Assembly: GCF_000378145.1 (NCBI RefSeq)
Contig: NZ_KB899279.1
Coordinates: 203,127-267,126, forward strand
DNA: 64,000 nucleotides
Reading direction: 5' to 3'
From: Saccharibacillus kuerlensis DSM 22868
Lineage (GTDB): Bacteria; Bacillota; Bacilli; Paenibacillales; Paenibacillaceae
Each line of letters starts with the position of its first letter. Positions within the stretch are counted from its first letter, which is position 1. The notes under the pieces were generated by a model. It made no database searches. It was not told the DNA's origin and was given only the letters and a program-made list of their open reading frames with translations. This document shows positions 515 through 63,992 of the stretch, one piece after another. Both the position numbers and the translations under genes were made by a program.

Positions 515-559
515 CCTGTTGGATGTATAAGGGATAAATATATCCGTTGCAGATAAGGA

Positions 560-655
560 CCGGCTCCACTTCCCTACGCCGGTACGAGCCGGATCAGGTT
601 CGAAGGGTCCAAGAACTGTTCTTGTCTCAGCCGCGCCGCGGCTCCCCCAGTGGAA
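560..655 (-). ncRNA. TPP riboswitch (THI element)
   Basis: On the minus strand the region contains the hallmark aptamer pieces in order: GGGGAGCC, GGCTGAGAC, ACCCTTCGAACCTGATC and a closing CGGCGTAGGGAAG. These match the conserved TPP-binding core. It is about 140 bases upstream of tenA and followed by a terminator hairpin, so transcriptional attenuation is the likely mode. Confidence 0.95.
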
Positions 656-724
656 TGCGATATTCGATTGACGAACGGGCAAGCTGTGTTACGTGTCTAC
701 TGTAGCTTCTCCCGCTATGTCTTG

Positions 725-4833: not shown

Positions 4834-7005
4834 CAACAGATCGTCTAACCAACGCTCCGCAAGACTCGTTGCACCGGGCAGAAACGGCAGCGCACCTACT
4901 CCAACTTTGCTGATGCTTCGATAAAAGTGGTGCTCCGCATATTCCTTTTCATCCGTGTATGGAAACAGCACACAGGCGGACGATACGCTCCGCTCGTATT
5001 TGTCGCTGCCTTCGCTGCGGTGCACGATGGCATCCCGATATCGGTGCATGACATTGATATCTTCTTCCAGCGGTCCCGGCGTTCCGTATCGTGAAGCGTA
5101 GCTGCTGCCGGGAACAGCCGGATCAAGCCGGTATTTGGCGTCCAGTACGAAAGTGACTTCTTTGTCTTGGGCTTTATCTTGGGCTTTATCTTGGGCTTGG
5201 TCTTGCTCTTTGTTTTGCGCTTGGTCTTGCACGTCGCCCCTTACGCTTTCCTTTACGCTCTCCTTCGTGTTTTCCTTCGTACTTCTCATCCCTTTATCGT
5301 TCTCTTCATCATTCTCTTTATTGTTTTCTTTATTGTTATCTTTATCGTTCCCTATATTGTTCCCCTTGTCCTCGGCTTCACGACTTTGCTCCTGTCCGCT
5401 GCTTTCCGATCCCGCTGCGGCTGGAATAGTCCGCTCAGGAGCAGTAGGCCGGCGCAGGGTCAGCAGCAGATCGGGACGCTGTTCCGTTGTTGGTCTGTTT
5501 CGGCCAAATATCGACGGGTTGTAGAGCAGCGATATTATAGTCCCACTCTCCCGATGCTCGTACTCAATACGGGAAAATCCGCCGCGAATCAATGACGGGA
5601 ACAGACCACTCCGATCAATACCGGAACCCTCACGGCGAATCATCCGGCACCGCTGCTTCAACAGACGGTGCAGTTTTAAGAAGCACCAATACTCGTACAG
5701 CTGCGCCGTGTCCTTAAGCGATAACCGAAGCATTCCTTCACGGATCGACAGCCCCTTGAGCAGCAGCAGATGCAGCTTGTACATTTCCCGGTAGCCCGGA
5801 GCCATCTGAAGCACGAGACTGACATTCATCCGCCGCAGCGGACCGGCATCGCGCAGGAAGTCCGCATTCAGCATGACGCCGATTCGCCGCCGAATCCGCT
5901 CCAGTTCCGCAACCAGCAGCGGGTCGCGTCCGGGACGGCTCTCCTGCAGCTCCCGCCGAAGTTCTTCCACACGCCGGACCGTGCGTTCGAGCATCCAGCG
6001 AAGAAAACGGTTCTCGTCCGTATCGGTCGAGATGACCCGGCGCGTCTCAAGCAGACGATCCGGCGTATAGCGCATCGGACTCCCAAACCTCAACGGTCCG
6101 CCGGACCTCTCCCGATTGCTGCCGGATGACGAATGAAGATGACTCGGCGCCAGATCGATCTCCAGCCATCCCCGTTCATCCGCCTTCAGTCGCTGTGGAT
6201 GCCGGCGCAGATCGTCCAGCGCGGATCGGCCCGCCCGGCGGACCCGTCCGCTCTCCATCAACCGATGCTCTTTTTCCAGACGCTGATGAGGATTGCTCTC
6301 GATCTGCAGCATGGCACTCTCCAGCCGCTCGAACACCCGGCGAAGAATGGCATGGAATTCGGTCAGGCTCTGTCTCGGCGTCTCCGCTTCTCCGGCAGGG
6401 CGATAAGTCCGGCGCAGAAAATCAAAGGTCAGGTCGTAGGCTTCTTCATTCACTTCATCCATCAGTCGAACGTAATCCCGCCGGTAATCCAGCTTGGCCG
6501 GAAAAATCTCGATTCCGATCGTCAGCACGGGACGGCCGTTCAGGCGAATCTCAAGGTCCGTCTCCCCGATCTCGCTGCCGAAATCCAGTGTGCCGGACAG
6601 CACGCTGCTTCCTCTTGGCTTGATCCGTCCGCGCAGATTGACGTTTTCATGATGAAAAGTCAGCTCCAGCGCCGGATCGGCCTTGATCAGCGTCAGTTCG
6701 TAGGTCTTGGTTTCGTAAAAACAAGGAAACGCCGGCATCCCCGGCTCCCATTCTTCGGACTGTCCGGTCTCCGGTGAAAAGAGACGTATCCGGCAGTCTG
6801 CCAGCCTGGGCGATTGTACGGCGGCTTCGAAACGGGCCGTCAGCCGTTCACCGCTGCCTGGATCGCGGTGCAGCGCCAGACGTTCGGCCGCTTCATGAAA
6901 CGGCTCTCCCGCAATATACAGTTCGAACAGATTGCACTCGATCCGCAGCAGTTCGGTGCTGGAATCGAAAGCGGCATCGGCAGAAGGCGGCCGGTAAAAG
7001 GTCAT
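4822..7005 (-). CDS. DUF2357 / McrC-like PD-(D/E)XK nuclease with low-complexity insert
   Basis: 727 residues. The N-terminal two thirds fit DUF2357 proteins, the nuclease partners of McrB-like AAA ATPases. The C-terminal part has the restriction-nuclease core: YEYWCFLKLHRLL, then RPDLLLTL (first acid about residue 511), then FVLDAKYRLD (Asp622, Lys624). An insert of about 90 residues rich in K, N, E, D and Q (about 527-617; DNA 5155-5427) lies between the two catalytic motifs and is built of four-residue repeats (DKAQ, NNKE). All units are multiples of three bases. It probably cleaves DNA, perhaps modified DNA, together with the McrB-like gene at 9385-11517, with a photolyase gene between them on the same strand. 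Start ATG at 7005. Confidence 0.8.
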   Translation of the reverse strand: MTFYRPPSADAAFDSSTELLRIECNLFELYIAGEPFHEAAERLALHRDPGSGERLTARFEAAVQSPRLADCRIRLFSPETGQSEEWEPGMPAFPCFYETKTYELTLIKADPALELTFHHENVNLRGRIKPRGSSVLSGTLDFGSEIGETDLEIRLNGRPVLTIGIEIFPAKLDYRRDYVRLMDEVNEEAYDLTFDFLRRTYRPAGEAETPRQSLTEFHAILRRVFERLESAMLQIESNPHQRLEKEHRLMESGRVRRAGRSALDDLRRHPQRLKADERGWLEIDLAPSHLHSSSGSNRERSGGPLRFGSPMRYTPDRLLETRRVISTDTDENRFLRWMLERTVRRVEELRRELQESRPGRDPLLVAELERIRRRIGVMLNADFLRDAGPLRRMNVSLVLQMAPGYREMYKLHLLLLKGLSIREGMLRLSLKDTAQLYEYWCFLKLHRLLKQRCRMIRREGSGIDRSGLFPSLIRGGFSRIEYEHRESGTIISLLYNPSIFGRNRPTTEQRPDLLLTLRRPTAPERTIPAAAGSESSGQEQSREAEDKGNNIGNDKDNNKENNKENDEENDKGMRSTKENTKESVKESVRGDVQDQAQNKEQDQAQDKAQDKAQDKEVTFVLDAKYRLDPAVPGSSYASRYGTPGPLEEDINVMHRYRDAIVHRSEGSDKYERSVSSACVLFPYTDEKEYAEHHFYRSISKVGVGALPFLPGATSLAERWLDDLLENK

Positions 7006-7140: not shown

Positions 7141-8484
7141 TCAACTTCCATTCACAATTCCTTTGTACACCTCAATCGCTGCTGCGCGAGAAGCTTTCAG
7201 ATCGACGATAGCGTCGGGGCGCGGCTGATGCACTGTTGCGACGTCTTCCTCCGTAAGTTCCGGCAGCCATTCGCGGATATGTTCGCCGTTCGGATCGTAT
7301 TTTTCGGACTGGGTCACCGGATTTACCACGCGGAAGTACGGAGCGGAATTCGCCCCGAGCGACGCGCACCACAGCCAGTTGCCGCGGTTCTGAACGTTGT
7401 CGTAATCCAGCAGCTTGCGGCGGAAATATTTTTCTCCCAGCGTAAACGGGCACTGCAGATTTTTGGTCAGGAACATGGCACACAGAATCCGCAGCCGGTT
7501 GGGCATCAGTCCGCTCTCGTTCAATCCCCGCATAGCCGCATCAATCGCCGGAATACCGGTTTCCCCTTTGGCCCAGCGCTCGAAATGTTCGTCGGTCAGC
7601 GCCGAGAGATCATACTTTTTCTCGTAGGAGAAGTAGTCTTCGTCATAGATCGCCAGATAATAGTAGAATTCGCGGAACGCCAGCTGGCGGACCCACTCAT
7701 CGCTGTTCTCCAGACGGGTCGCCCGGGCATACAGCTCGCGGATCGAAACGGCTCCGGCATTTACGTGCGGATTGATGCCGCTCGCCGGAAGTTCCGGGTA
7801 ATAGTCGCGCTTGTCACCGTATTCTTCGATACCATTTTGCAGAAAAGGCTCCAGTTTCTCCGTCCATTCGTCCGCCGGCTCGTAATCATTCAGATCAAAC
7901 GGAACACGGAATTCGTCCGCCCACTCCCGGTCCACCTGTCCCTCCGTCAGATCGCTAAGTACAGTCGAGGAAGGTTCGTTCGGCGCATGCGCCAGATATT
8001 CAAGCCATTTCCGGTGAAAAGGCGCGAAGATCTTGTAGTACCCGTCCTTGCCCGTGAACTCAGCGAATGTCTGGGGATCGATCATCAGCGTATCCAGCAG
8101 CGGCGTGAATGCAGCTCCATGCTTATCGGCCGCTTCTGTCAGCTTGCGATCGCGGTCGCGCGCATACGGCGTAAAGTCCCGGTGAACAACGACTTCGTCG
8201 ATCTCCAATTCTCCTCCTTTGAGCATGTTCAGCAGACGGTCCAGCACCTCGTCCGGCGCGCCGTAAACGATATGCAGCGTGCGCCCTTCCTTCTCGTATA
8301 GATCGCGCAGCCGTCTGACGTGACGCAGAAAGTTGACGCCGCTGTGCTCTTTGTCCCGGCCTTTTTGCAGCAAAAAAGGATCGAGAATCAGCAGATGCAT
8401 CACCGGAGCCCCGGCTTCCTGCAGGTAGTCGAAAGCGGCAAGGTCTCCGGTGCGGAGGTCTTTCCGGTGAATGAACAATTTCAA
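7141..8484 (-). CDS. phr: Deoxyribodipyrimidine photolyase (CPD photolyase)
   Basis: 447 residues. It repairs UV-induced cyclobutane pyrimidine dimers with blue light, using FAD and an antenna chromophore. The N-terminal alpha/beta antenna domain begins KLFIHRKDLR. The FAD-binding part carries the family signature WAKGETGIPAIDAAMR...LMPNRLRI and the GNWLWCASLGANSAPYFRVVNP segment. Length is usual for class I enzymes. The start is TTG (8482-8484) with GGGAGA upstream. It lies between the two genes of a McrBC-like pair, all on one strand, which is an unusual place; the 900-base upstream gap is filled with repeats. Confidence 0.93.
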   Translation of the reverse strand: MKLFIHRKDLRTGDLAAFDYLQEAGAPVMHLLILDPFLLQKGRDKEHSGVNFLRHVRRLRDLYEKEGRTLHIVYGAPDEVLDRLLNMLKGGELEIDEVVVHRDFTPYARDRDRKLTEAADKHGAAFTPLLDTLMIDPQTFAEFTGKDGYYKIFAPFHRKWLEYLAHAPNEPSSTVLSDLTEGQVDREWADEFRVPFDLNDYEPADEWTEKLEPFLQNGIEEYGDKRDYYPELPASGINPHVNAGAVSIRELYARATRLENSDEWVRQLAFREFYYYLAIYDEDYFSYEKKYDLSALTDEHFERWAKGETGIPAIDAAMRGLNESGLMPNRLRILCAMFLTKNLQCPFTLGEKYFRRKLLDYDNVQNRGNWLWCASLGANSAPYFRVVNPVTQSEKYDPNGEHIREWLPELTEEDVATVHQPRPDAIVDLKASRAAAIEVYKGIVNGS

Positions 8485-8761: not shown

Positions 8762-8952
8762 GTTTAACGAATCCTGATATCGCTATTCCTCACTTTTCGG
8801 TCTTTTTCAGAATCTAACGAATCCTGATATTCTTATTTGCTGCAGTTAGGACTTTCTACAATCAATTCGGCCTAAATAGCGTGATAAGGATTCGTTAGAA
8901 TTTAAAAAAGCCGTCTGAAGAGCGAATAGCGTGTTTAGGATTCGTTAGATAC
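8762..8952. repeat. Family A repeat cluster 1 (forward-forward-reverse-reverse)
   Basis: Four copies of a ~28-base unit with core CTAACGAATCCTGATA and tail CGCTATTT: forward at 8762-8790 and 8811-8838, inverted at 8871-8903 and 8920-8952. Same-strand copies are 49-50 bases apart. The two halves can fold onto each other as a long interrupted stem. A second cluster with the same layout is at 17471-17661. Confidence 0.85.
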
Positions 8953-9175
8953 CATAGCTGATTAAGGGCATCTAACGAATTAGGATTCGTTAGATGCCAT
9001 AGCTGATTAAGGGCGTCTAACGAATTAGGATTCGTTAGAGTCTTACAACTGATTAAAGCGTTTAATGAATTAGCACTCCTTAGAGGCTCCTAACTGATTA
9101 AAAGCATTTAACGAATTAGAATTTGTTAAACGCTCATAACTAGATAAAAGCATCCCACGAATTAAGATTCATTGG
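8941..9175. repeat. 45-bp tandem array, each unit holding a hairpin
   Basis: Five units with starts at 8941, 8986, 9031, 9076 and 9121 (exact 45-base period), then a sixth partial unit. Each holds an inverted repeat; in the first two it is perfect, TCTAACGAAT-TAGG-ATTCGTTAGA (8971-8994, 9016-9039), and it decays to the right. The palindrome arm is the same word as the core of family A, so the array probably grew from the last family A unit. Confidence 0.85.
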
Positions 9176-9384
9176 TGTGCTAGATTGTGCAGGGTTTCTA
9201 AGTCCCTTCACGGATGTTCTCTCGAAAGAAAATCCGCTTTTTTTTGCGTACTCGCAGCATTTGGCTGCGGAACACAGCTGTAGAGCTGCATAGAGCTGCA
9301 TGGATCTGCATAGAGTCGCATCGTGTCGGCCATTCAATTCGGCCAACTCAACAAAGTCATGCGATCCTATGCGACTTCATCCAA

Positions 9385-11517
9385 TTAGCTCAGCCAATAT
9401 GACGTAAACCCATCTTCGTCCAGCCGCCGCAGCATGTACGATATCTTGCGCGCACTCTGCGGATAACGAGCCGCCGCCAGCGACTCCCGGCTGCGCCGTC
9501 CCGAGTAGACGGCTTCCGCGGAATCTTCCAGCTCACGCCAGTCGAATGCTTTGGACGCCTCGCTGCCGAGGCAGTGGCGCAGCAGATCCAGCAGCACCCT
9601 TTTGACCGAATAACGGCTTCCCTGGATGCGGGGCAGAATCTTCTGCATCAGTTGGGCATCGAAAGCTTCCGCGCGCGTCATCAGCTTAAAACGCTCGTTG
9701 TAGATCAGATAGAAGCAGATTGCGTCGCGCACCCGGAATCCGACGTGTGCTTGGATTTCTTCCAGCATTCCGTTGATCTCCGACAGTTCTTCAGCCGTCC
9801 GTTCGATCAGCTTGGCATAGTCTCCCATAGCGTCTACCAGCTGCAGATAATCGCTGCCCAGCAGATGCCGGTCCGCCAGCAGCGCTTCCTCTTCCTGCTC
9901 GGCTTCGGCATAGAGCTGCGGCAGCTGCATCAAGTCGATATGATTGAACTCGATTGTGCCGGCGCGGTCGAGAACCTTTTTGCTGAACGGATATGTGGTC
10001 TCGTCCATGTTCACTGTACCGATTACATACACATTGCCCGGAATATACAGATTGCCGTATTCTTCGCGGTCTTCCCGACGATCGAACATCGATTCCGGCA
10101 GCAGCGGCTGCGTCACGATCTCCCCGAGCGGGTGCGCCAGACGCTGCGGATCGGTCGAATGCCCGCGATCGGCAGGACCTGTGAGTCCTGCCAATCCTGC
10201 GGGATCGGCCGTCCTGTCTTTCCGTCCGATCGATCGCCGGCGTGTCTCCATCAAGCTCAGCACATCGCTAAAGTAATGCTCAACCCGTGCCAGATTCATC
10301 TCATCCAGCACGATAAAATAAGGCTTGTCGGCATTGCCCGGACGTGATGCTTCCTTCAACGCCAGCGTCAGCGGTCCAGGCTTGAAGACACCGGACAGGT
10401 CCCTATAGCCGATCAGATCGGCGGGATCGCTCCAGTCCGGACGCACCGGAATAAGCGTAAACTGCCCGTTGTCCGGCGCCGCGCCGAGCGCTTCCGCAAA
10501 CAGCCGCGCAAGCTGCGTCTTGCCCGTACCAGATATGCCCGCGAGGATCACAAACGGACGGGTCTTGAGGGACAGATAGAAATGCTCCACCAATCCATCG
10601 GGGAATGAAAAGCCCCGCTGCCGGATGTAAGCCGACACACCGGCTATCGCGGCGCGAACTTCGTCGTCGGGAATATGCGGTGGAGCCGGTTCAGCAGGAG
10701 AAAGTGCCGCTGAATCTTCATCTGACCGCCCGTCTTCGGCCTGCGGGGGAGCGACCAAGTATTCGGCGCCAGTCTCCGCAATAATGAAATGCGAAGGACG
10801 CATCTCTTGGCCGCCCAGGGGGCGCAGCTCCAGCCGATACGTAAACGGCGTATCCGTGCGGTACAAATAGAGATATTCGGCGCGGTCTTCACGCGGCAGA
10901 TATGCATCCGGCGTATCGAACGGGCTGCGGACGGCGCCCTTATCCGGCGCTGTGCCGCGCGGCGGAATACGGCGGCTGCCGGAAGCTGTATTCCCGGCGG
11001 CACCCGCCTGTGCCTGGCCGGTCGGCATCTGGCTGGTCTGCGTCTGACCTGTCTGCGTCTGACCTGCCTCTGCCGCAGCGGCATAGACGCCGGCCGGGCC
11101 GTATTCGCGGTTCTGCACGCGGGTACCGTTCTGGCGATTCGCTTGATCGACAAAACGAGCCGCCCATTCCTTCACTTCCAAATAAGTGGAGGAGAAGACC
11201 GACAGCAGGAACTGCTTCAACTCCTTGTTGGAGTCGTAGCGAACTTCAAGCGAGGATTTGCCGCTCGGCACAGCGATACGCCAGTGCTCCAAGCGGGCCT
11301 CGTAGGTGGCGTACACGCCGCCGTTTTCGTGCAACAGACGGATCGGCCGGCTCTCGCCAATTGCCGGAAGAGAACCGCCGCATGCTTCTATGAAATCCGG
11401 GTAGAAATCGGCCGGAATCTCGAAGCCGTGCCCGAACAGAAATCCGTCGACCTGTTTGCGCGCGATCAGGCCGGGGATGCGATCATCTTTCCACCAGCTT
11501 CCGTTTTGTTTGATCAT
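9385..11517 (-). CDS. McrB-like AAA+ ATPase/GTPase
   Basis: 710 residues. An N-terminal MrcB-like recognition region (about 1-135) is followed by a flexible repeat linker (GQTQT units, about 150-175, DNA 10993-11070). The AAA+ motor has Walker A GISGTGKT (327-334), Walker B FIVLDEMN (401-408), the McrB-type segment VNMDETTYPFSKKVLDRA (502-519) and a helical C-terminus. In McrBC-type systems such a motor drives a separate nuclease on modified or foreign DNA; here the DUF2357 nuclease at 4822-7005 is the likely partner. GGAGGA precedes the ATG. The two genes are split by the photolyase and a long repeat region, so co-transcription is uncertain. Confidence 0.82.
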   Translation of the reverse strand: MIKQNGSWWKDDRIPGLIARKQVDGFLFGHGFEIPADFYPDFIEACGGSLPAIGESRPIRLLHENGGVYATYEARLEHWRIAVPSGKSSLEVRYDSNKELKQFLLSVFSSTYLEVKEWAARFVDQANRQNGTRVQNREYGPAGVYAAAAEAGQTQTGQTQTSQMPTGQAQAGAAGNTASGSRRIPPRGTAPDKGAVRSPFDTPDAYLPREDRAEYLYLYRTDTPFTYRLELRPLGGQEMRPSHFIIAETGAEYLVAPPQAEDGRSDEDSAALSPAEPAPPHIPDDEVRAAIAGVSAYIRQRGFSFPDGLVEHFYLSLKTRPFVILAGISGTGKTQLARLFAEALGAAPDNGQFTLIPVRPDWSDPADLIGYRDLSGVFKPGPLTLALKEASRPGNADKPYFIVLDEMNLARVEHYFSDVLSLMETRRRSIGRKDRTADPAGLAGLTGPADRGHSTDPQRLAHPLGEIVTQPLLPESMFDRREDREEYGNLYIPGNVYVIGTVNMDETTYPFSKKVLDRAGTIEFNHIDLMQLPQLYAEAEQEEEALLADRHLLGSDYLQLVDAMGDYAKLIERTAEELSEINGMLEEIQAHVGFRVRDAICFYLIYNERFKLMTRAEAFDAQLMQKILPRIQGSRYSVKRVLLDLLRHCLGSEASKAFDWRELEDSAEAVYSGRRSRESLAAARYPQSARKISYMLRRLDEDGFTSYWLS

Positions 11518-11771
11518 GATGACGTACTCCTCCGTTACAGATCGTCGGGCATCAGCCCGGATTTCTTCGATGAGTTTCTTCTATAGATCACATTATATCT
11601 AAGAACGCATATGATATCTAAGAACGTAGCAGCTTGTCTGACTCAAGCAGTCGGTTTACATTCGCTTGAATCGCACACTTTTTAAGTGGAAATCAAGCGG
11701 GCTAAACCGAACATTTATATAAAACAAACCGGTATCGATAAACACTCTTATAAAGGTTATACCCAAACAGC

Positions 11772-11808
11772 AAAAAGCCGCTCCCTGAAACGAAGGGAAC
11801 AGCTTCTT
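11772..11808 (-). terminator. Possible second terminator downstream of peptide importer
   Basis: Imperfect stem AAGCCGCTCCCT / AGGGAACAGCTT with a short T-run on the minus strand. Together with the next hairpin it could end the importer transcript. The rest of 11518-11771 shows no gene. Confidence 0.5.
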
Positions 11809-11845
11809 GATGCACACGGATAAACAGCTTTATTAACGAATAGAC

Positions 11846-11890
11846 AAAAAAGGCTGCCCGGCACGCCTTTGGCGTTCCGGACAACCTTTT
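11846..11890 (-). terminator. Intrinsic terminator of the peptide importer operon
   Basis: Long imperfect stem AAAGGCTGCCCGGCACGCC / GGCGTTCCGGACAACCTTT with six T after it on the minus strand, 28 bases beyond the permease stop. Confidence 0.8.
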
Positions 11891-11916
11891 CTTGTGCGGC
11901 ACCTTTCTTATGCGGC
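11884..11916 (-). repeat. 16/17-bp duplication at the end of the permease gene
   Basis: ACCTTTTCTTGTGCGGC (11884-11900) and ACCTTTCTTATGCGGC (11901-11916) lie head-to-tail just after the permease stop codon. Confidence 0.6.
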
Positions 11917-11917
11917 A

Positions 11918-12826
11918 TTATCTGCCCTTCATCTTCGGATCGAACGTATCGCGCAGTCCGTCGCCCATCAGGTTAAAGCCGAGCGACGTCAGCAGAATAC
12001 ACAGGCCCGGAAAAATGACGGTCCACGGCGCGGTCTGGAGGAACTGCCGGGAATCGGACAGCATCTTGCCCCATTCCGGCTCCGGCGGCTGGGCGCCGAG
12101 CCCCAGGAAACCGAGTCCCGCCGCTTCAATGATCGCTGTCGCAACCCCCAGTGTTCCCTGGACAATGATCGGCGTCAGACTGTTCGGCAGAATATGCTTG
12201 AACAGAATACGGCTGTCGTTCGCGCCAAGCGCACGCGCCGCCGTAATGAATTCCTCCTGCCGCAGAGACAACACCCTTGAACGGACCAGCCGACCGTAGG
12301 TGGGAATGTTGACGATCGCGATCGCATACAAGGCGTTTTGCAGCGACGGACCGAGAATAGCTACGATGGCGATGGCCAACAGAATACCCGGGAAGGCCAG
12401 CAAAATATCGAATACGCGTGAAATGATCATATCCACCCATTTGCCGTAAAACCCGGCGACGATACCGAGCAGCGTGCCGATCACGATCGAACCGACAACC
12501 GACAGGAAGCCGACCCAGAGCGAGATACGTGCACCGTAGATCACGCGGCTGAACACGTCACGGCCCAGATCATCGGTTCCGAACCAATGCTCGCCGGACG
12601 GCGGCTGCAGACGGTCGGACAGCACCTGTGCCTTGTAATCGAACGGCATGATCAGCGGCGCGGCCAGTGCCAGCAGCACGAAGAAGACCACGAGACTCAG
12701 ACCGACGACAGCCGTTTTGTTACGTACAAACGATCGGGCTGCTTCCCGCCAGGGGCCGGGCTGCACTTTTTTGTTCGCCAGATTTTCGGACGGACGAATA
12801 TCGGCTTTCAGGAATGCATCGCTCAT
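11918..12826 (-). CDS. Peptide ABC transporter permease, DppC/OppC type
   Basis: 302 residues. Cytoplasmic N-terminus, one membrane segment near residues 38-60, then the GTDDLGRDVFSRVIYGAR signature of the OppC/DppC group and five further membrane segments. The EAA coupling loop is near ARALGANDSRILFKHILPNS. It pairs with the DppB-type permease nine bases upstream and the binding protein at 14032. No ATPase gene follows; the next gene is the unrelated McrB-like gene. The ATPase must be encoded elsewhere or shared. Confidence 0.92.
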   Translation of the reverse strand: MSDAFLKADIRPSENLANKKVQPGPWREAARSFVRNKTAVVGLSLVVFFVLLALAAPLIMPFDYKAQVLSDRLQPPSGEHWFGTDDLGRDVFSRVIYGARISLWVGFLSVVGSIVIGTLLGIVAGFYGKWVDMIISRVFDILLAFPGILLAIAIVAILGPSLQNALYAIAIVNIPTYGRLVRSRVLSLRQEEFITAARALGANDSRILFKHILPNSLTPIIVQGTLGVATAIIEAAGLGFLGLGAQPPEPEWGKMLSDSRQFLQTAPWTVIFPGLCILLTSLGFNLMGDGLRDTFDPKMKGR

Positions 12827-12836
12827 ACTATTCCCC

Positions 12837-13841
12837 CTATTTATACTGGATCCGCGGATCGAACACGACGTACAGCAGATCCACCAGCAGATTGATTAAG
12901 ACGAAGATGACCGCGACAATCAGAATGCCGGATTGAATGACCGGATAATCCCGATTGCTGATCGCTTCGAAAATGTATCGTCCTACACCCGGCCAAGCGA
13001 AAATCGTTTCAGTCAGCACCGCACCGCCAAGCAGCGCGCCTGTCTGAAGACCGATAACCGTCAGCACCGGGATAAACGAATTTTTGAGCGCATGCCGGTA
13101 CACGACGGCAAACTGCGACAGCCCTTTTGCCCGCGCCGTGCGCACATAATCGAGCTGCATCACTTCCAGCATGCTGGAACGTGTCATCCGCGCGATGACC
13201 GCCATCGGAATCGTGCCGAGCGCGATCGCCGGCAGCACCAAATGTTTCGTGACCGTCCAGAGCTGCGCGAACTGTCCCTGAATGATTGCGTCGAGCACGT
13301 AGAAGCCGGTGACCGCCTCCATCGGATCGCGCGCGTTCATCCGACCGCTCGAAGGCAGCCAGCGCAGCTCATTGGCGAAGATCCACTGCTCCATCAGACC
13401 GAGCCAGAATACCGGCATCGAGACGCCGAGCAGCGCAATCAGCATACTGACGTAGTCGAACCATGAATTGTGCTTCCATGCGCTGATAATTCCCGCGTTA
13501 ACGCCAATGAGTACGGCAAACAGCATACTCGCCATCGTCAGCTCGAACGTCGCCGCCAGATACGGTCCGATCTCCTGTGAGATCGGTGCGCGTGTACGGA
13601 TCGAGTTCCCCAGATCGCCGCTCAGCAGATCACCTAGATAACTGAAATACTGCTGCAGCCACGGCTTGTCGAGTCCCAACTGATCGCGCAGTGCCTGCTT
13701 GGACTGCTCAGTCGCTTTTTCCCCCAGAATCGTATCCGCCGGATCGCCCGGTATGGCATGAATGATCGAAAAAACGATCAGCGTCATGCCCAGCAGTACC
13801 GGAACAAGCACCAGCATTCTTTTGAATATGTAAGAACTCAT
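12837..13841 (-). CDS. Peptide ABC transporter permease, DppB/OppB type
   Basis: 334 residues with the usual first segment (LVPVLLGMTLIVFSIIHAIPGDPA), six predicted membrane segments and the EAA loop YVRTARAKGLSQFAVVYRHALKNS. It forms the membrane pore with the DppC-type protein encoded right after it. The gene sits between the binding-protein gene (190-base gap with a hairpin) and the second permease gene. Confidence 0.92.
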   Translation of the reverse strand: MSSYIFKRMLVLVPVLLGMTLIVFSIIHAIPGDPADTILGEKATEQSKQALRDQLGLDKPWLQQYFSYLGDLLSGDLGNSIRTRAPISQEIGPYLAATFELTMASMLFAVLIGVNAGIISAWKHNSWFDYVSMLIALLGVSMPVFWLGLMEQWIFANELRWLPSSGRMNARDPMEAVTGFYVLDAIIQGQFAQLWTVTKHLVLPAIALGTIPMAVIARMTRSSMLEVMQLDYVRTARAKGLSQFAVVYRHALKNSFIPVLTVIGLQTGALLGGAVLTETIFAWPGVGRYIFEAISNRDYPVIQSGILIVAVIFVLINLLVDLLYVVFDPRIQYK

Positions 13842-13894
13842 TGTCTATCACCCGCCGTAGGTTTGGTACGGGTAGCCCCGTTGGTACAAAGGAC

Positions 13895-13934
13895 GGCCCG
13901 AAAGTCCGCCGCAGAGCGGCGTCCCTCTCGGGCC
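13895..13934 (-). other. Stable intercistronic hairpin
   Basis: GGCCCGA / TCGGGCC outer arms enclose a second GCCGC / GCGGC stem. There is no T-run, so it is more likely an mRNA-stabilising element that raises binding protein over permease than a terminator. Confidence 0.6.
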
Positions 13935-13947
13935 GAAGAAAACCTTT

Positions 13948-14048
13948 TTACTGCTGGATTGAACTTACCTTTGGACCGAAATTACTATTAACTCAAATTA
14001 CTGTTGAATCTAAATTACTCTCGGATCGAAATTACTGTTGGATCGAAA
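13948..14048 (-). repeat. Six 17-bp copies of the binding-protein gene 3' end
   Basis: Starts at 14032, 14015, 13998, 13982, 13965 and 13948. Read on the minus strand the unit is TTTCGATCCAACAGTAA, the last codons plus the stop of the binding-protein gene; each following copy also ends in TAA. One unit is 16 bases. The array fills the space between the stop codon and the intercistronic hairpin. Confidence 0.9.
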
Positions 14049-15696
14049 TCTCCGCATAAGGTTCTGAACCTGTCGGAGACGGTACATACCCTTGCACCTT
14101 GTTGGAAGCGGCCAGCAGCGGTGTGGAATGCACGAGCGGCACCCAAGGCGCATCTTCGTGCACGATGACCTGCGCTTCTTCGTACAGCTTGGTCCGCTCG
14201 TCCTGATCCGTCTCCTGCTGCGCCTTTACCAGCACCTCATGCAGCGGATCGCTGGCATATTGGCTGTAGTTGTTGCCGCCGATGGAATCCTTGTCGAGCA
14301 GCGGGTAGAAGAAGTTGTCCGGGTCGCCGTTGTCTCCCGTCCAGCCGATGATGAACAGATCGTCCTTCTCGCCCTTGCTCAAATCGTCCAGGTAAGTCGC
14401 CCATTCCGGCGATTCGATATTGACCGTTACGCCGATCTGCGCGAAGCTCGCTTGAATCACTTCGGCGACCTTCCGGCCGTCCGGCATGTACGGACGGGAT
14501 ACCGGCATCGCGTAGAACGTCAGCGGCTGCTCGATTCCGTTGGCGTATCCGGCATCGGCCAGCAGCTGCTTGGCTTTCTCCAGATCGTAAGGATAGTCTT
14601 CGATGCTGTCGTTGTAGCCCCACAGCGACGGCGGGATCGGGTTCTTGGCCGGCTCCGCTTGTCCTGCGAAGAAGGCGTCGACGATGCCCTGTTTGTCGAC
14701 TGCATGACTCAGCGCAATACGTACGGCCGGATCGTCGAACGGCTTCTTGGTTACGTTGAAGCCCAGGTAAGCGACGTTGAACGGAGGGCGGTTGAACTTC
14801 TGCAGATCCGGGTTGCTCTCCAGCGTCGCCAGATCGTCGGGACTGAGATCTTCCATGAAGTCGATCTCGCCGTTCTGGAGAGCGTTGAAGCGTGCCGTGT
14901 TGTCCGGGATCGAGCGGACAATGACTGTATCAACCTTCGGCAGTCCTTCCTGCCAATACTCCGGGTTCTTGTCGAGCGTAATCGAATCGCTGCGTTTCCA
15001 TTCCTTGAACACGAATGGACCGGTTCCGATTGGGTTTGCTTTGAAGTCCGCACCCGATTCCTGAATGGCCGTCGGACTGGCAATCGAGAACGCAGGCATC
15101 GCCAGGTTCTGCAGGAACGGTGCCTGCGGCTGATTCAGCTCGAATACGACCGTCGAAGCGTCCTGCGCCGTTACACTCTTAATGACACGCGCTTCCGCAG
15201 GACCGAACATGGAATCGTAGTAATCAAACGAATCGCCTTCGAACTTGAACTCACTCTCCGGGTCGTTCCAGCGGTTGAAATTGAAGACGACCGCATCAGC
15301 ATCAAAATCCGTCCCATCATGAAACTTAACGCCCTGCCGCAGCTTGAACGTATACGTCAGTCCGTCTTCGGAGATTTCCCAACTTTCGGCCAGTGCAGGT
15401 TCAACTTCAGTCGTACCGGCTTTGTAAGCGAGCAGCGGATCGAATACCTGCTGAGCAATCTTCAGCGATTCGCCATCGGTTACAATCGCCGGATCAAGTG
15501 CCGCAGAATCTCCGCCGCGCCCTACAATCAAGGTGCCGCCGCTGCCGCCTTCGGCAGTCGTTCCCGATGCAGCAGGTTCAGCGCCTGTATTGTTGGAAGC
15601 TGCCGGTTCGGCTGTACCTCCTCCTCCACCGCAAGCTGCCAAAATAAGCACCAGTGACAGCATCATCGTAAACAGGAATCCTAATCTTTTTCGCAT
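14032..15696 (-). CDS. Peptide ABC transporter substrate-binding lipoprotein (SBP_bac_5)
   Basis: 554 residues from the ATG at 15694-15696, preceded by GAGGGGAG; the frame is open further upstream to 15798 but without a ribosome binding site. A signal peptide ends in the lipobox LAAC (Cys22), then a low-complexity GGGG/AAS spacer and a family 5 binding domain (RQGVKFHDGTDFDADAVVFNF, NPIGTGPFVFKEW). It would capture oligopeptides or similar solutes outside the membrane and deliver them to the DppB/DppC-like permeases. Its 3' end is repeated six times downstream. Confidence 0.93.
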   Translation of the reverse strand: MRKRLGFLFTMMLSLVLILAACGGGGGTAEPAASNNTGAEPAASGTTAEGGSGGTLIVGRGGDSAALDPAIVTDGESLKIAQQVFDPLLAYKAGTTEVEPALAESWEISEDGLTYTFKLRQGVKFHDGTDFDADAVVFNFNRWNDPESEFKFEGDSFDYYDSMFGPAEARVIKSVTAQDASTVVFELNQPQAPFLQNLAMPAFSIASPTAIQESGADFKANPIGTGPFVFKEWKRSDSITLDKNPEYWQEGLPKVDTVIVRSIPDNTARFNALQNGEIDFMEDLSPDDLATLESNPDLQKFNRPPFNVAYLGFNVTKKPFDDPAVRIALSHAVDKQGIVDAFFAGQAEPAKNPIPPSLWGYNDSIEDYPYDLEKAKQLLADAGYANGIEQPLTFYAMPVSRPYMPDGRKVAEVIQASFAQIGVTVNIESPEWATYLDDLSKGEKDDLFIIGWTGDNGDPDNFFYPLLDKDSIGGNNYSQYASDPLHEVLVKAQQETDQDERTKLYEEAQVIVHEDAPWVPLVHSTPLLAASNKVQGYVPSPTGSEPYAEISIQQ

Positions 15697-16196
15697 AAAT
15701 CGTACACTCCCCTCAAGATCGCATTCTGCCCGTACACGGAGCCCAGCTGAGTCCAACATGTTACAACAGTTATGTATATTGGCTTGTTTATCACTCATTG
15801 GCTTCGGTCCGAGTGATTATACCTTACATAAATATGATCAATTTCGCAATATGTATTTCTAAGTATCTAGTTTTGTGTAATTTTAATTAACATATATAGT
15901 TGGTTTGTCTGTGAAATATTTTTCATCTATAAGTGCAGTTTCAAGCATAAATCGAAACGTTTGGAAAGCTTTTCGCTTTTTTATTGACTATCGATTAAAT
16001 AAGACCTGGCCGCAGTTCTTTTATGCCTAATGCTCCTGTTTCGCTCCCTTTCCACTCCTCAACTCTTTGTCCTCTCCTTTCCACAAACAGGATTTATTTT
16101 CTAATGCAAGGCAACTTTCTCCCCGTCTATCCCGTTCAATTGGAGACTTGGATCTATACAAAAAAGAGCTTCTTCTATCCAAAGGGGGCATTTTCC

Positions 16197-16898
16197 ATGC
16201 CAAAAATCAAAAAAAGTCATCGGATATTTCTGCTCATTTTCGCCGCTGTCCTGCTGACTGCCACCACCTTATTTATTGCGCTGCAGTTCAAACTTCACGG
16301 ATTGGAGCGCGACATGCGGATCTATTTGATCGAACAGGGAGTCGCCGAAAAGGAGATTCTGCACATTGAAGCCAGACGGTCCAAGCTGCCTACGTATCCC
16401 GTTCTCGTCACCCTGTCGCACCGACCGGATCAGCCTTATATGTTTAAGCCCGACGAAGAAAAACGAGGCGAATTCGTGCTCATCGGTTCCGCTCTCCCAC
16501 CTCAGTTGATCGATCGCGAAGCGCAAACCAAGAGGTATATCGCTTATTTGCAAGCCAGAGGGTTCACCGATATCAAGCATCTTGGTACGACCGACTCGGC
16601 GCTGATGGAAAAAGGCGAAGCCGTCTGGGAGCTTGCGCAGCAGTATTGGACGGTTCCGGAAGCCAATCCGCAGTCTTTTGAAGGGCAGCGGGCGTACACG
16701 TACAAATTCAACGTGGAACATCCAACTATTCGCGAATCTCTCGGGCTGCATGCAGAAGATCGTCTGAACGCGTATCTCACCTTGATCGGCGATCAGGTTC
16801 GAATGGGGTATTTCAACGTACAATATGTCGCCGCCGAAGACCGGAAGCAGCACAAAGAAATTTTCTACACGCTGCAAGGGAAACTTCCCGCTGAGTAA
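16197..16898 (+). CDS. Membrane-anchored DUF3139-like protein
   Basis: 233 residues from the ATG at 16197, which has AAGGGGG upstream; the 58-codon extension to 16023 lacks one. One N-terminal membrane anchor (about 10-32) is followed by an extracellular part whose start (RMRIYLIEQG-like pattern, EILHIEARRSKLPTYPVLV) resembles DUF3139 proteins. The rest (to 233) is unknown. The next gene follows after 66 bases and may be co-transcribed. Confidence 0.7.
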   Translation: MPKIKKSHRIFLLIFAAVLLTATTLFIALQFKLHGLERDMRIYLIEQGVAEKEILHIEARRSKLPTYPVLVTLSHRPDQPYMFKPDEEKRGEFVLIGSALPPQLIDREAQTKRYIAYLQARGFTDIKHLGTTDSALMEKGEAVWELAQQYWTVPEANPQSFEGQRAYTYKFNVEHPTIRESLGLHAEDRLNAYLTLIGDQVRMGYFNVQYVAAEDRKQHKEIFYTLQGKLPAE

Positions 16899-16964
16899 CT
16901 TTATGGCACGGAACGCTATCTTTTTTGCTCTCATAATTCTCTTAACGAAAGCGAGGCTTCTATC

Positions 16965-17246
16965 ATGCGCAGCCAACAACTTTTTTCTGCCATACTCGTT
17001 CTGCTGATATCCGCCGCTGCCGCCTATCTCTTCTTCTCGCCTACTGTAAATTTCAGATTGTACGAATCCGAATGGCTGCCCGGATTTCTCGTCGCCCTGA
17101 CGGGTGCCGGACTCGGTATGCTGCTGCTGTTCCCGCACCGTCATCAGTCCGTTTTATGCAGGGTTGTGCTGTGGGGATCTTGGGCGGTTCTGCTGCTGTA
17201 TGTGCTGGTGCTGACTCCGTTCGCTGTGCTGCTGTTTGGTCCTTGA
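16965..17246 (+). CDS. Small three-helix membrane protein
   Basis: 93 residues, nearly all hydrophobic, with three membrane segments separated by short loops (SEWLPG, PHRHQS). The ribosome binding site is weak (GCGAGG). It is probably translated with the gene before it. Family not recognised. Confidence 0.55.
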   Translation: MRSQQLFSAILVLLISAAAAYLFFSPTVNFRLYESEWLPGFLVALTGAGLGMLLLFPHRHQSVLCRVVLWGSWAVLLLYVLVLTPFAVLLFGP

Positions 17247-17259
17247 ACGGGAAGTTGTG

Positions 17260-17465
17260 GCCGGGGCAGTCTTTTTAAAGGCCGTCTTTTTGAAGAAGGT
17301 TAGGGGCTGAGAAAACTGATATATTTGGCATAGGCTGCGGAAGGCATGGATGTGGGACACATAGGCTACAGGGTGCATGTGACGCACATATTGTATGGAC
17401 TGTACAGGAGGCATACGGGGTACGAGCTGTATAGGTACAGACTGCACGCTTCAATTTGCAGAGCT
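17260..17465. other. Gene-free stretch with decayed short repeats
   Basis: GGCAGTCTTTTTAAA and GGCCGTCTTTTTGAA are neighbours at 17265-17294, followed by loosely repeated GGCATR/ACATAGGCT words up to 17460. No supported gene. Confidence 0.5.
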
Positions 17466-17470
17466 TAACA

Positions 17471-17661
17471 ATTCTAACGAATCGTAATCACGCTATTTGC
17501 TCTCCAAAAGACTTTTACAAATTCTAACGAATCCTAGTCATGCTATTTGAGCCAAATTGGCGTTAAACACACCTGTTAGCTGTAAATAGGGATATGAGGA
17601 TTCATTAGACTTTTAAAAACACTTAAATCCGTCAAATAGCGATACTAGGATTCGTTAAAAT
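17471..17661. repeat. Family A repeat cluster 2 (forward-forward-reverse-reverse)
   Basis: Forward units at 17471-17499 and 17521-17549 (ATTCTAACGAATC...GCTATTTG), inverted units at 17584-17610 and 17634-17661. Spacing within each orientation is exactly 50 bases. Same word and layout as 8762-8952. It lies upstream of a lipoprotein gene. Confidence 0.88.
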
Positions 17662-18371: not shown

Positions 18372-18415
18372 AAAAGAACGGCTTCTCCTGTATGTGACAG
18401 GGAGCCGTTCTTTTG
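18372..18415. terminator. Bidirectional terminator
   Basis: AAAAGAACGGCTTCTCCTGT pairs imperfectly with ACAGGGAGCCGTTCTTTT. It serves the lipoprotein gene on the plus strand and, beyond the repeat-filled 3' UTR, the FAD oxidase on the minus strand. Confidence 0.85.
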
Positions 18416-18715
18416 CTTATGCTTTTTACTTATGCTTTTTACTTATGCTTTTTACTTATGCTTTGCTGCTTGTGCTTTAAGGTTTGTAGTGTGAGGTTTG
18501 GTTTATGCGTTATGGTTTATAATTTACTGCTTATGCTTTACGGTTTATGTTTCACTGCTTGTCCTGACTGATCATCCTTTATAGCTTGCCCTTACCGTTT
18601 ATCTTTTACGGATTGTCCTTACGGCTTGCTCTTTAAAACCAGTCCTTTATAGCTTGTGCCCTATACGTTATACTTTGTAATTCATGCTCGCTTTCTACCT
18701 AAAAGATACCGAATC
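18416..18715. repeat. 300-base degenerate tandem repeat in 3' UTR of the FAD oxidase
   Basis: Near 18416-18470 the 14-base unit CTTATGCTTTTTA is clean and repeated four times. Towards the oxidase stop it decays into GTTTATNNTTTAC-like words. No reading frame is supported. It lies between the oxidase stop and the terminator. Confidence 0.75.
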
Positions 18716-45777: not shown

Positions 45778-46016
45778 AAAATAAGTGCAGGAGTACACTT
45801 ATTTTAGGCCATTAGCTCTCCACAGACAAAATAAGTGCTCAGATACAATTAATTTACTACCAAACGTTAAAAATGCCGAAATAATCAGGAAATAAGTGTA
45901 TCTACACACTTATTCGGCTGAAATGGTGACATATCGCTTAAATAAGTGTATCCACGCACTTATTTGGTCAAAATGGTGATGCAGCTGCCCAATTACACGT
46001 ATCTGTGCGATTTTTT
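45778..46016. repeat. Family B repeat cluster 1 (FFRR plus one more R)
   Basis: Forward units at 45778-45805 (arms AAAATAAGTG / CACTTATTTT) and 45828-45855; inverted units at 45890-45917, 45940-45967 and, weaker, 45990-46016. All same-strand spacings are 50 bases. Confidence 0.85.
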
Positions 46017-50936: not shown

Positions 50937-51125
50937 AAAATAAGTGCGTACATACAACTATTTAAGAAATAAACCGGCCAAAACCAAAAATAAGTGTGCT
51001 CATACAACTATTTCGCAGGAAAAGCGCAGAATCACCGTGAAACAAAGCAATTAGTTGTACCTACGCACTTATTTTTATCAAAACGACTTATTTATCAAAA
51101 TTAATTGTATCTGTGCACTTATTCT
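50937..51125. repeat. Family B repeat cluster 2 (forward-forward-reverse-reverse)
   Basis: Forward units at 50937-50964 and 50987-51014 (AAAATAAGTG...ACAACTATTT), inverted units at 51047-51076 and 51097-51125. Same-strand spacing is exactly 50. Confidence 0.88.
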
Positions 51126-51304
51126 CATTGAGAGCGTAAATCTAGAAGGTGAATTTAAAGAATGAACCTAAAAAGTAGACCCAAAGAGTACATCGCGAAC
51201 CAAAAAGCAATATCGAAAAATCCGACTGAATGAATTTCAGATCAGAGCGGTTCGCAGACTGAGTGATAAACAGATGCTCTTGAAACAGTCAGCGAACACT
51301 GCAG

Positions 51305-51382
51305 CCTCACCTTTCAGCCTTACCTTTCAGCCTCACCTTTCAGCCTCACCTTTCAGCCTTACCTTTCAACTTTGCCTTACAG
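51305..51382. repeat. 13-bp tandem array
   Basis: CCTYACCTTTCAG five times in a row (starts 51305, 51318, 51331, 51344, 51357), then one decayed copy. Confidence 0.85.
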
Positions 51383-51403
51383 AGCCACTGCTCATCAAAA
51401 AAC

Positions 51404-63800: not shown

Positions 63801-63992
63801 AAAAATAAGTGCGAGCATGCAACTAAATAACCGCCATGGTCGACTTTTTGCGAAATAAGTGCTGGGATACACTTATTTTTCGGAAAACAGAATATTTGGA
63901 TGATAGAACGGAGATTTAGTTGTACATACGCACTTATTCTGATAAAAAATGAAAATAAGAGTAAATTAATTGCATATACGCACTTATTTCTG
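63801..63992. repeat. Family B repeat cluster 3 (forward-forward-reverse-reverse)
   Basis: Forward units near 63801 and 63851 (AAATAAGTGC), inverted units near 63915 and 63965 (ACGCACTTATT). Spacing within each orientation is exactly 50 bases. The cluster may extend past the window end. Confidence 0.85.

What the first reader, a model, noticed from the sequence alone, without database searches (positions are those of the whole stretch)
8762..17661. Family A: unrelated sequence, same FFRR layout
Clusters at 8762-8952 and 17471-17661 use a different word (CTAACGAATCCT...CGCTATTT) yet show the same order F-F-R-R and the same 49-50 base pitch as family B. Two unrelated sequences converging on one geometry suggest a common machinery or function acting on the arrangement, not on the sequence.
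Basis: seen in the sequence. Interest (0 to 1): 0.85.

Follow-up and report, generated by a model that had tools for sequence, protein, structure and literature searches.

The report
Four-word DNA elements with fixed spacing
Between genes of Paenibacillus-like bacteria sit dozens of short DNA elements in which one 26-letter word is written twice forwards and twice backwards at rigidly fixed distances, and at least three different words use this same layout, which hints at an unknown DNA-binding machine that reads spacing as well as sequence.

Summary
Both family A clusters carry four 26-nt words as F-F-R-R with start spacings 50/61/50, as do the three family B clusters. The host genome (4.7 Mb, probably Saccharibacillus) yielded 23 A and 39 B clusters, a few of them one place at two contig ends; none of 67 mixes A with B. 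Family A occurs in Paenibacillus, Cohnella, Saccharibacillus and another family of the order. A word-independent scan found a third family (C, 114 words in congener G011; 17 of 23 clusters read F-F-R-R); a fourth word (D) shares the spacing, but its order cannot be read. The centre seems to change by one helical turn: A 60/61 or 70-72, C/D 61 or 72 in 28 of 28 printed clusters. Words are conserved in place at two orthologous loci (7% divergence against 18-24% in spacers and flanks). F:R complementarity does not covary, so an RNA hairpin is unlikely. Best reading: a dispersed non-coding DNA element, four sites for a dedicated, unidentified DNA-binding protein whose halves pair on one face of the helix. 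It spreads like a MITE and sometimes rides inside unrelated MITEs. No description turned up in six full-text searches aimed at it.

The parts
8763..8949 (.). Family A element A1 (F-F-R-R, 50/61/50)
8763..8788 (+). A1 word F1
8813..8838 (+). A1 word F2
8874..8899 (-). A1 word R3
8924..8949 (-). A1 word R4
8955..9160 (.). 45-bp tandem array of palindromic A left half-sites (TCTAACGAAT/ATTCGTTAGA) directly after A1; an eroded extension is my inference
17473..17659 (.). Family A element A2 (F-F-R-R, 50/61/50; opposite polarity to A1)
17473..17498 (+). A2 word F1
17523..17548 (+). A2 word F2
17584..17609 (-). A2 word R3
17634..17659 (-). A2 word R4
45779..45965 (.). Family B element (50/61/50)
50938..51124 (.). 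Family B element (50/61/50)
63803..63989 (.). Family B element (50/61/50)

Best explanation
A dispersed, non-coding DNA element of about 187 bp made of four 26-bp protein-binding sites (each two half-sites, probably for a dimer) in the order F-F-R-R. Shown: near-exact word spacings over many genomes; three word families (A, B, C) in this order and a fourth (D) on the same spacing; centre lengths at values one helical turn apart; words constrained in place at two loci; no F:R covariation; intergenic position with divergent gene pairs avoided. Inferred: a dedicated sequence-specific protein (another specificity for each word family) fills two sites on each side, and the two filled halves pair across the 35-bp centre, which only works when they face the same side of the helix. 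The element spreads in MITE-like fashion, naked or inside other MITEs. I think it most likely that FF and RR are the two ends of a minimal non-autonomous mobile element recognised in trans, and that bound copies are also kept in place afterwards; whether the payoff is mobility or a host function is open.
For: Spacing of A: in 50 clusters found by single words, FF 44 of 46 at 50, FR 49 of 49 at 60/61, RR 45 of 51 at 50; in 125 clusters from a scan that itself required one pair at 50-base pitch, so that only FR is free, FR 96 of 119 at 60/61 and 16 at 70-72 (2 of the 177 clusters left out as repeats). B in the own genome: FF 34 of 36 at 50, FR 36 of 36 at 60/61, RR 30 of 32 at 50. C/D: 28 of 28 printed clusters have centre 61 (11) or 72 (17). 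In-place constraint: locus 1, 16 genomes, word core 0.925 identity against 0.79 spacers, 0.80 centre, 0.76 flanks; locus 2, 13 genomes, 0.931 against 0.82, 0.81, 0.80; the contrast holds in subsets without the reference clade. Spread: unrelated flanks around own A copies; genome-specific word variants by eye; B copies inside a composite TA-ended MITE; YN15 A copies inside a MITE with other ends. Context: 60 convergent, 78 co-oriented, 15 divergent among 153 of 185 clusters with both neighbours called, 3 of 185 inside an ORF, against a background of 23-25% convergent and 23-33% divergent; own genome alone 21/21/3. None of 67 clusters mixes A and B. Precedent for helical spacing of transposase ends on short DNA: passages of PMC3464196.
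Against: No binding protein or transposase was found: no recurrent neighbouring gene, no DDE_3 and no Y1_Tnp in the own genome. No target-site duplication seen by eye around own A copies, and no clean empty site: at the second orthologous locus, species without the element have other intergenic DNA or a larger gap. Helical steps rest on few independent events: the 69-72 clusters all come from 11 named Paenibacillus strains, plus one 11-bp deletion in L124 and the C family. Single cases at 44, 65 and 69 also occur, and one ortholog went from 71 to 65. For near-palindromic words orientation is uncertain: 10 of 28 C/D clusters, D's five among them, do not read F-F-R-R or F-F-R. The A word is not palindromic, so 'dimer site' is weaker for A. 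Simple MITE ends would not be expected to stay constrained after insertion. A has no match in 11 of 15 congeners, B none in 9 of 15; 100 kb each of G005 and G010 held no place above the scan threshold.
Confidence: 0.55

Rival explanations
1. Host chromosome or transcription architecture site, a functional counterpart of BIME elements: four dimers form a looped complex between convergent genes (supercoil, boundary or roadblock function); spreading is secondary.
For: In-place constraint, convergent-gene excess, 50/61/50 also in another family of the order (L069), presence inside two different MITEs.
Against: Patchy: A pattern absent from 11 of 15 congeners, B from 9 of 15; words differ between congeners; a convergent bias is also expected of any insertion that spares promoters; the A words listed for G002 look concentrated at 1.2-4.2 Mb of a 5.6 Mb chromosome (about 100 of 130 places listed, by eye, origin not determined).
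Confidence: 0.25
2. Structured RNA or dsRNA hairpin: F1 pairs with R4 and F2 with R3 in a transcript; equal FF and RR spacing follows from the hairpin.
For: The three copies folded do far better than shuffles: z -7.9, -6.0 and -5.0; FF and RR spacings are equal.
Against: Within single genomes or like sets, F1:R4 and F2:R3 pair no better, often worse, than across shuffled clusters in A and B (clusters were not oriented, which lowers the observed values, so only the lack of an excess counts). Over 139 pooled multi-species A quads identity exceeds shuffles for all six word pairs alike, F1:F2 and R3:R4 included, which relatedness alone gives. The loop length is held to one or two values; no Rfam hit here.
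Confidence: 0.07
3. Inert relics of an ancient MITE radiation; geometry is only inherited and words look conserved because copies were found by their words.
For: Dispersed, genome-specific variants; unit losses and truncations; a 45-bp array beside A1. The reference copy of each orthologous set was itself found by its words, and orthologs not aligning over the element were dropped.
Against: Orthologs were fetched with queries that are mostly flanking DNA (about 200 bp of element in 1901 and 1251 bp), not chosen by words, and show word constraint also outside the reference clade; the centre is almost free of indels at both loci (gap share 0.000 and 0.003); centre lengths fall on values one turn apart.
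Confidence: 0.13

Closest known systems
REP / BIME elements mobilised by RAYT (TnpA-REP)
   Same: Intergenic, high copy, both orientations in one element, species-specific words, thought to be non-autonomous mobile and protein-binding (abstract and passages of PMC2817692)
   Different: Four 26-nt sites at fixed 50/61/50; A word not a hairpin palindrome; no Y1_Tnp in the own genome and in only 1 of 16 genus genomes; in Stenotrophomonas BIMEs the passages describe inter-REP segments that vary substantially in length, here they do not
MITEs
   Same: Short, non-coding, dispersed, inverted symmetry; some copies lie inside MITE-like units with TIRs
   Different: No target-site duplication seen for naked copies; words stay constrained in place; rigid internal geometry
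Transposon ends with repeated transposase sites (Tc1/mariner IR/DR, IS21, Tn7; recalled)
   Same: Two direct sites per end, inverted between ends
   Different: No transposase identified; DDE_3 absent from the own genome; no F-F-gene-R-R copy seen in the loci fetched
Helically phased short eliminated sequences of Paramecium (passages of PMC3464196)
   Same: Length between two ends peaks about one helical turn apart
   Different: Eukaryote; excised elements; no four-site words

Membership tests
REP/BIME (RAYT-mobilised) | Cognate Y1 transposase (RAYT) in the genome | tested here: not met
   PF01797: 0 in G000; 1 of 16 genus genomes
REP/BIME (RAYT-mobilised) | Each repeat a self-complementary hairpin palindrome | tested here: inconclusive
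   B and C words are quasi-palindromic, A words are not
MITE | Terminal inverted repeats | tested here: inconclusive
   F1/R4 words bound the shared unit in own A copies by eye; one pair, L009/L013, aligns 132 bp further in a simple-repeat stretch
MITE | Target-site duplication or clean empty site | tested here: inconclusive
   None seen by eye in the flanks of the own A copies; no clean empty site at the loci compared
IS630 / Tc1-mariner-derived element | DDE_3 transposase source in the genome | tested here: not met
   PF13358 no match in G000
Structured RNA | Compensatory changes in the proposed helices | tested here: not met
   No excess of F:R complementarity over shuffled clusters; no Rfam match at gathering score in the window other than a distant TPP riboswitch
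Structured RNA | Transcribed, processed RNA | not testable with these tools
   no expression data
Phage or plasmid-borne element | Presence in phage or plasmid sequences | tested here: not met
   Exact A pair pattern 0 hits in viral contigs; the one B hit lies in an ORF of a phage-like contig and looks like chance; no plasmid match to A1; B, C and D were not searched in plasmids

The most novel reading that the evidence does not exclude
A new class of bacterial DNA module: a standard four-site frame (50/61/50 with one-turn centre steps) kept across an order of Firmicutes while the recognised word has been exchanged (three words in F-F-R-R, probably four), read by a family of paralogous DNA-binding proteins with switchable specificity that builds a phased paired complex at tens of intergenic sites per genome.
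Probability: 0.35. Interest if true: 0.9.

Novelty: new variant of a known kind. Interest (0 to 1): 0.77.

Why it matters
Bacterial repeats are usually recognised by shared sequence. Here the conserved thing is a layout shared by several words, so sequence-based repeat finders split or miss it. If a dedicated protein reads it, it would be a new type of DNA architecture or mobility system in a large order of soil and plant bacteria, with natural spacing experiments (one-turn steps, exchanged words) already done by evolution.

Tried and rejected
RNA hairpin: strong folds but no covariation. RAYT and IS630 sources: not in the own genome. A neighbouring gene that travels with the element: the largest group of similar neighbours was 8 sequences from 6 loci, for 185 clusters. 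Phage or plasmid origin. Empty sites: at A1 the intergenic DNA of the congeners fetched does not align; at the first Paenibacillus locus L286 and L287 look like deletions that leave word pieces; at the second, species without the element have other intergenic DNA or a larger gap. Rfam: only a TPP riboswitch elsewhere in the window. A whole-proteome comparison of word-positive and word-negative congeners could not be run.

Literature: eight searches. Six were aimed at the element, two at analogies. Seen: listings with starts of abstracts (one search listed 15 of 228 papers holding a word fragment, one search listed 12 of 243, one search listed 10 of 55), plus passages of PMC3464196 and PMC2817692. 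IR/DR, IS21 and Tn7 ends are recalled. The IS50 helical-constraint paper was seen only as an entry in the reference list of PMC3464196.

Limits of counts: the 125 A clusters were chosen by one pair at exact 50-base pitch, so their FF or RR values are biased; one search splits them off. Some loci are one place reached twice (L080/L099 and L077/L106; L012/L016; L043/L058 share flanks; G002 stretches overlap L083). Searches did not orient clusters. The B clusters are those fetched from the listing, plus the window. Of 32 loci examined, 28 gave a cluster of three or more words; L349, L353, L363 and L368 did not. In the orthologous sets rows were dropped: at locus 1 the loci whose match did not span the element (14 of 30) and L271, the same place as L162; at locus 2, 12 loci that span both flanks but lack the element. 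The 2.4 Mb includes overlapping loci and is rich in loci chosen for A or B words.
Full report
Observation. The two family A clusters are real: four 26-nt words each, F-F-R-R, word starts 8763/8813/8874/8924 and 17473/17523/17584/17634. The three family B clusters in the window have the same 50/61/50 spacing. A scan of the window that knows only the geometry returns exactly these five places above its threshold, scores 115-126 of 156. It fixes only the parity of the centre; the value 61 comes from word-anchored positions. Other geometries gave a median maximum of 72.

Genome-wide. In the own genome the A pattern has 81 matches and the B pattern 133 (up to 3 mismatches), with none for the reversed patterns. 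In the fetched neighbourhoods and the window there are 23 A and 39 B clusters with two or more words; some at contig ends are one place seen twice (L012/L016; L043/L058, by eye). Of 67 clusters none mixes A and B words, and 5 have a single word above threshold. A few have an extra word 47-50 away (FFFRR, FFRRR, FFRRRR).

Relatives. The A pattern matches in 20 of 59 genomes searched, own included: 7 have 21 or more matches, 4 have 10-14 and 9 have 1-3. G036, of another family of the order, has 21 words, and its fetched locus L069 reads 50/61/50. The B pattern matches in 11 of 59, own included. Within the genus A is absent from 11 of 15 congeners and B from 9 of 15. A scan of named genomes for two A half-sites at 50-base pitch gave 117 stretches before it stopped. 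By title 113 are Paenibacillus, Cohnella, Saccharibacillus or a Paenibacillaceae MAG, and 4 are not (L098, L112, L121, L163); these 4 gave no cluster. The host is probably Saccharibacillus: flanks of one own cluster match S. deserti (L122) at 79-89%.

More words. Scanning the fetched DNA (2.4 Mb, with overlaps) for the geometry alone, after removing A and B, left two places. One is an A-like variant in L072. The other is a new word in congener G011, consensus ATTGATGCATATCCGCATCAATTT, with 114 matches there against 0-14 in the 15 other genomes of the genus set, own included. In one search, G011 gave 23 clusters of three or more words: 17 read F-F-R-R, one F-F-R, five otherwise (near-palindromic words). 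Dyad spacing is 50/72/50 or 50/61/50, outer steps 50 or 51. Loci of G013 and G008 show a further word, AATGATGGATATTCGCAGCATTTT, at 50/61/50 (5 clusters), but none reads F-F-R-R: its orientation is not readable. So three words share layout and spacing, and a fourth shares the spacing. They are not all unrelated: by eye A and B end alike, and B left halves in G002 and G011 (AAATAACTGC, AAATAACGTC, AAATAGCGGC) grade towards A's right half.

Spacing. For A clusters found by single words (50), FF is 50 in 44 of 46, FR 60/61 in 49 of 49, RR 50 in 45 of 51 (others 47, 49, 51 three times, 89). For the 125 found by a 50-pitch pair only FR is a free measure: 60/61 in 96 of 119, 70-72 in 16, 50/51 in 2, single cases at 44, 65 and 69, and 111 twice where F2 is missing. 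The 69-72 clusters come from 11 named Paenibacillus strains, among them P. amylolyticus, P. xylanexedens, P. pabuli, P. tundrae and P. taichungensis. C/D centres are 61 (11) or 72 (17) in 28 of 28 printed clusters. One orthologous pair shows an 11-bp centre deletion, 61 to 50 (L124/L196); another shows 71 to 65 (L183/L211), against the rule. One-turn steps fit binding to duplex DNA; the number of independent events is small.

Constraint in place. The element of L162 was followed through orthologs fetched with a 1.9-kb query. In 16 genomes the word core has 0.925 mean pairwise identity, other word positions 0.84, spacers 0.79, centre 0.80, flanks 0.76. Of the core columns 37 of 56 are invariant, against 38 of 93 spacer and centre columns (Fisher P 0.004) and 46 of 160 flank columns (P 1e-6). 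A second locus (L155, 13 genomes) gives 0.931, 0.84, 0.82, 0.81 and 0.80. The contrast remains in subsets without the reference clade. The centre has almost no gaps at either locus. Losses occur too: L282 lost one unit between R3 and R4, L286 and L287 lost most of the element, and L398 and L399 lack F1.

Not an RNA helix. The three copies folded do well (z -7.9, -6.0, -5.0), as any F-F-R-R must. But in the own genome, G002 and P. lignilyticus-like sets the complementarity of F1:R4 and F2:R3 is in no set clearly above that of shuffled clusters and often below. Because clusters were not oriented the deficit itself says nothing; the lack of an excess does. Over 139 pooled multi-species A quads identity exceeds shuffles for all six word pairs alike, as relatedness gives.

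Spread. By eye, own A copies share sequence from F1 to R4 and differ beyond, without a visible target-site duplication; one pair, L009/L013, also aligns over 132 upstream bases of simple repeats. Several own B copies (L034, L035, L043, L060 and others) lie in a composite of about 510 bp with ends TAGGGC(G/A)TGTACGCAAAC...GTTTGCATACAGGCCCTA. Of 22 matches to its left arm, 15 have three or more B words beside them, 2 have one at a contig end and 5 none. Two of the latter (L319, L321) look like complete MITEs of about 150 bp without the element. In Paenibacillus sp. YN15, A elements lie in a different MITE-like unit with GGCTGTCCGAAAAGT ends: both ends visible in 2 of 9 copies shown (L115, L157), the right end in several more. 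So the four-word module is separable from its vehicles. Clusters avoid divergent gaps and favour convergent ones: 60/78/15 convergent/co-oriented/divergent, against 23-25%/42-54%/23-33% in 864 kb of window and congener DNA (genes called mechanically; many of the clusters are from other genera than the background).

Mechanism. I read it as four protein sites, paired F-F and R-R, whose halves meet across a short centre that must keep helical phase. Transposase ends on very short DNA are discussed in that way in the Paramecium paper (passages of PMC3464196). A host role like those proposed for BIMEs (PMC2817692, abstract and passages) would explain the constraint better. I could not find the protein: no Y1_Tnp and no DDE_3 in the own genome, no recurrent neighbour.

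Surroundings. A1 lies between a photolyase-like gene (7141-8484, -) and an ATPase with an AAA domain (9385-11517, -); the three ORFs tested beside A2 have no Pfam hit.

Verdict. Real and widespread; six searches aimed at it showed no description in their listings. By geometry it looks like a new kind of interspersed bacterial element, but I file it as a new variant of dispersed repeats until the protein is known.

Noticed in passing
window 554-658 (-): TPP riboswitch aptamer (Rfam RF00059, 82 bits).
   Followed up: no
window 8955-9160: Tandem 45-bp array of palindromes built from the A left half-site, directly downstream of A1.
   Followed up: partly
L043 2167-2675 and 21 further left-arm matches in the own genome: Composite MITE of about 510 bp with TA-type ends carrying a B element; its 150-bp left MITE also exists without the element.
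   Followed up: partly
L071 and L072 (genomes G032, G033): Further A-like words with left halves TCTAACGGA and TAACGAAAC at the same spacings.
   Followed up: no
L167 715-1052: Overlapping double element F-F-R-R-F-R-R (50, 61, 50, 40, 61, 50).
   Followed up: no
window 5160-5367, 18411-18462, 51289-51392 and flanks of many own clusters: Short tandem repeats of 12-13 bp and other simple repeats in this genome.
   Followed up: no
genome G002 (single contig, 5.62 Mb): The A words listed look concentrated between about 1.2 and 4.2 Mb, densest near 3.4-4.0 Mb (about 100 of 130 places listed, by eye).
   Followed up: no
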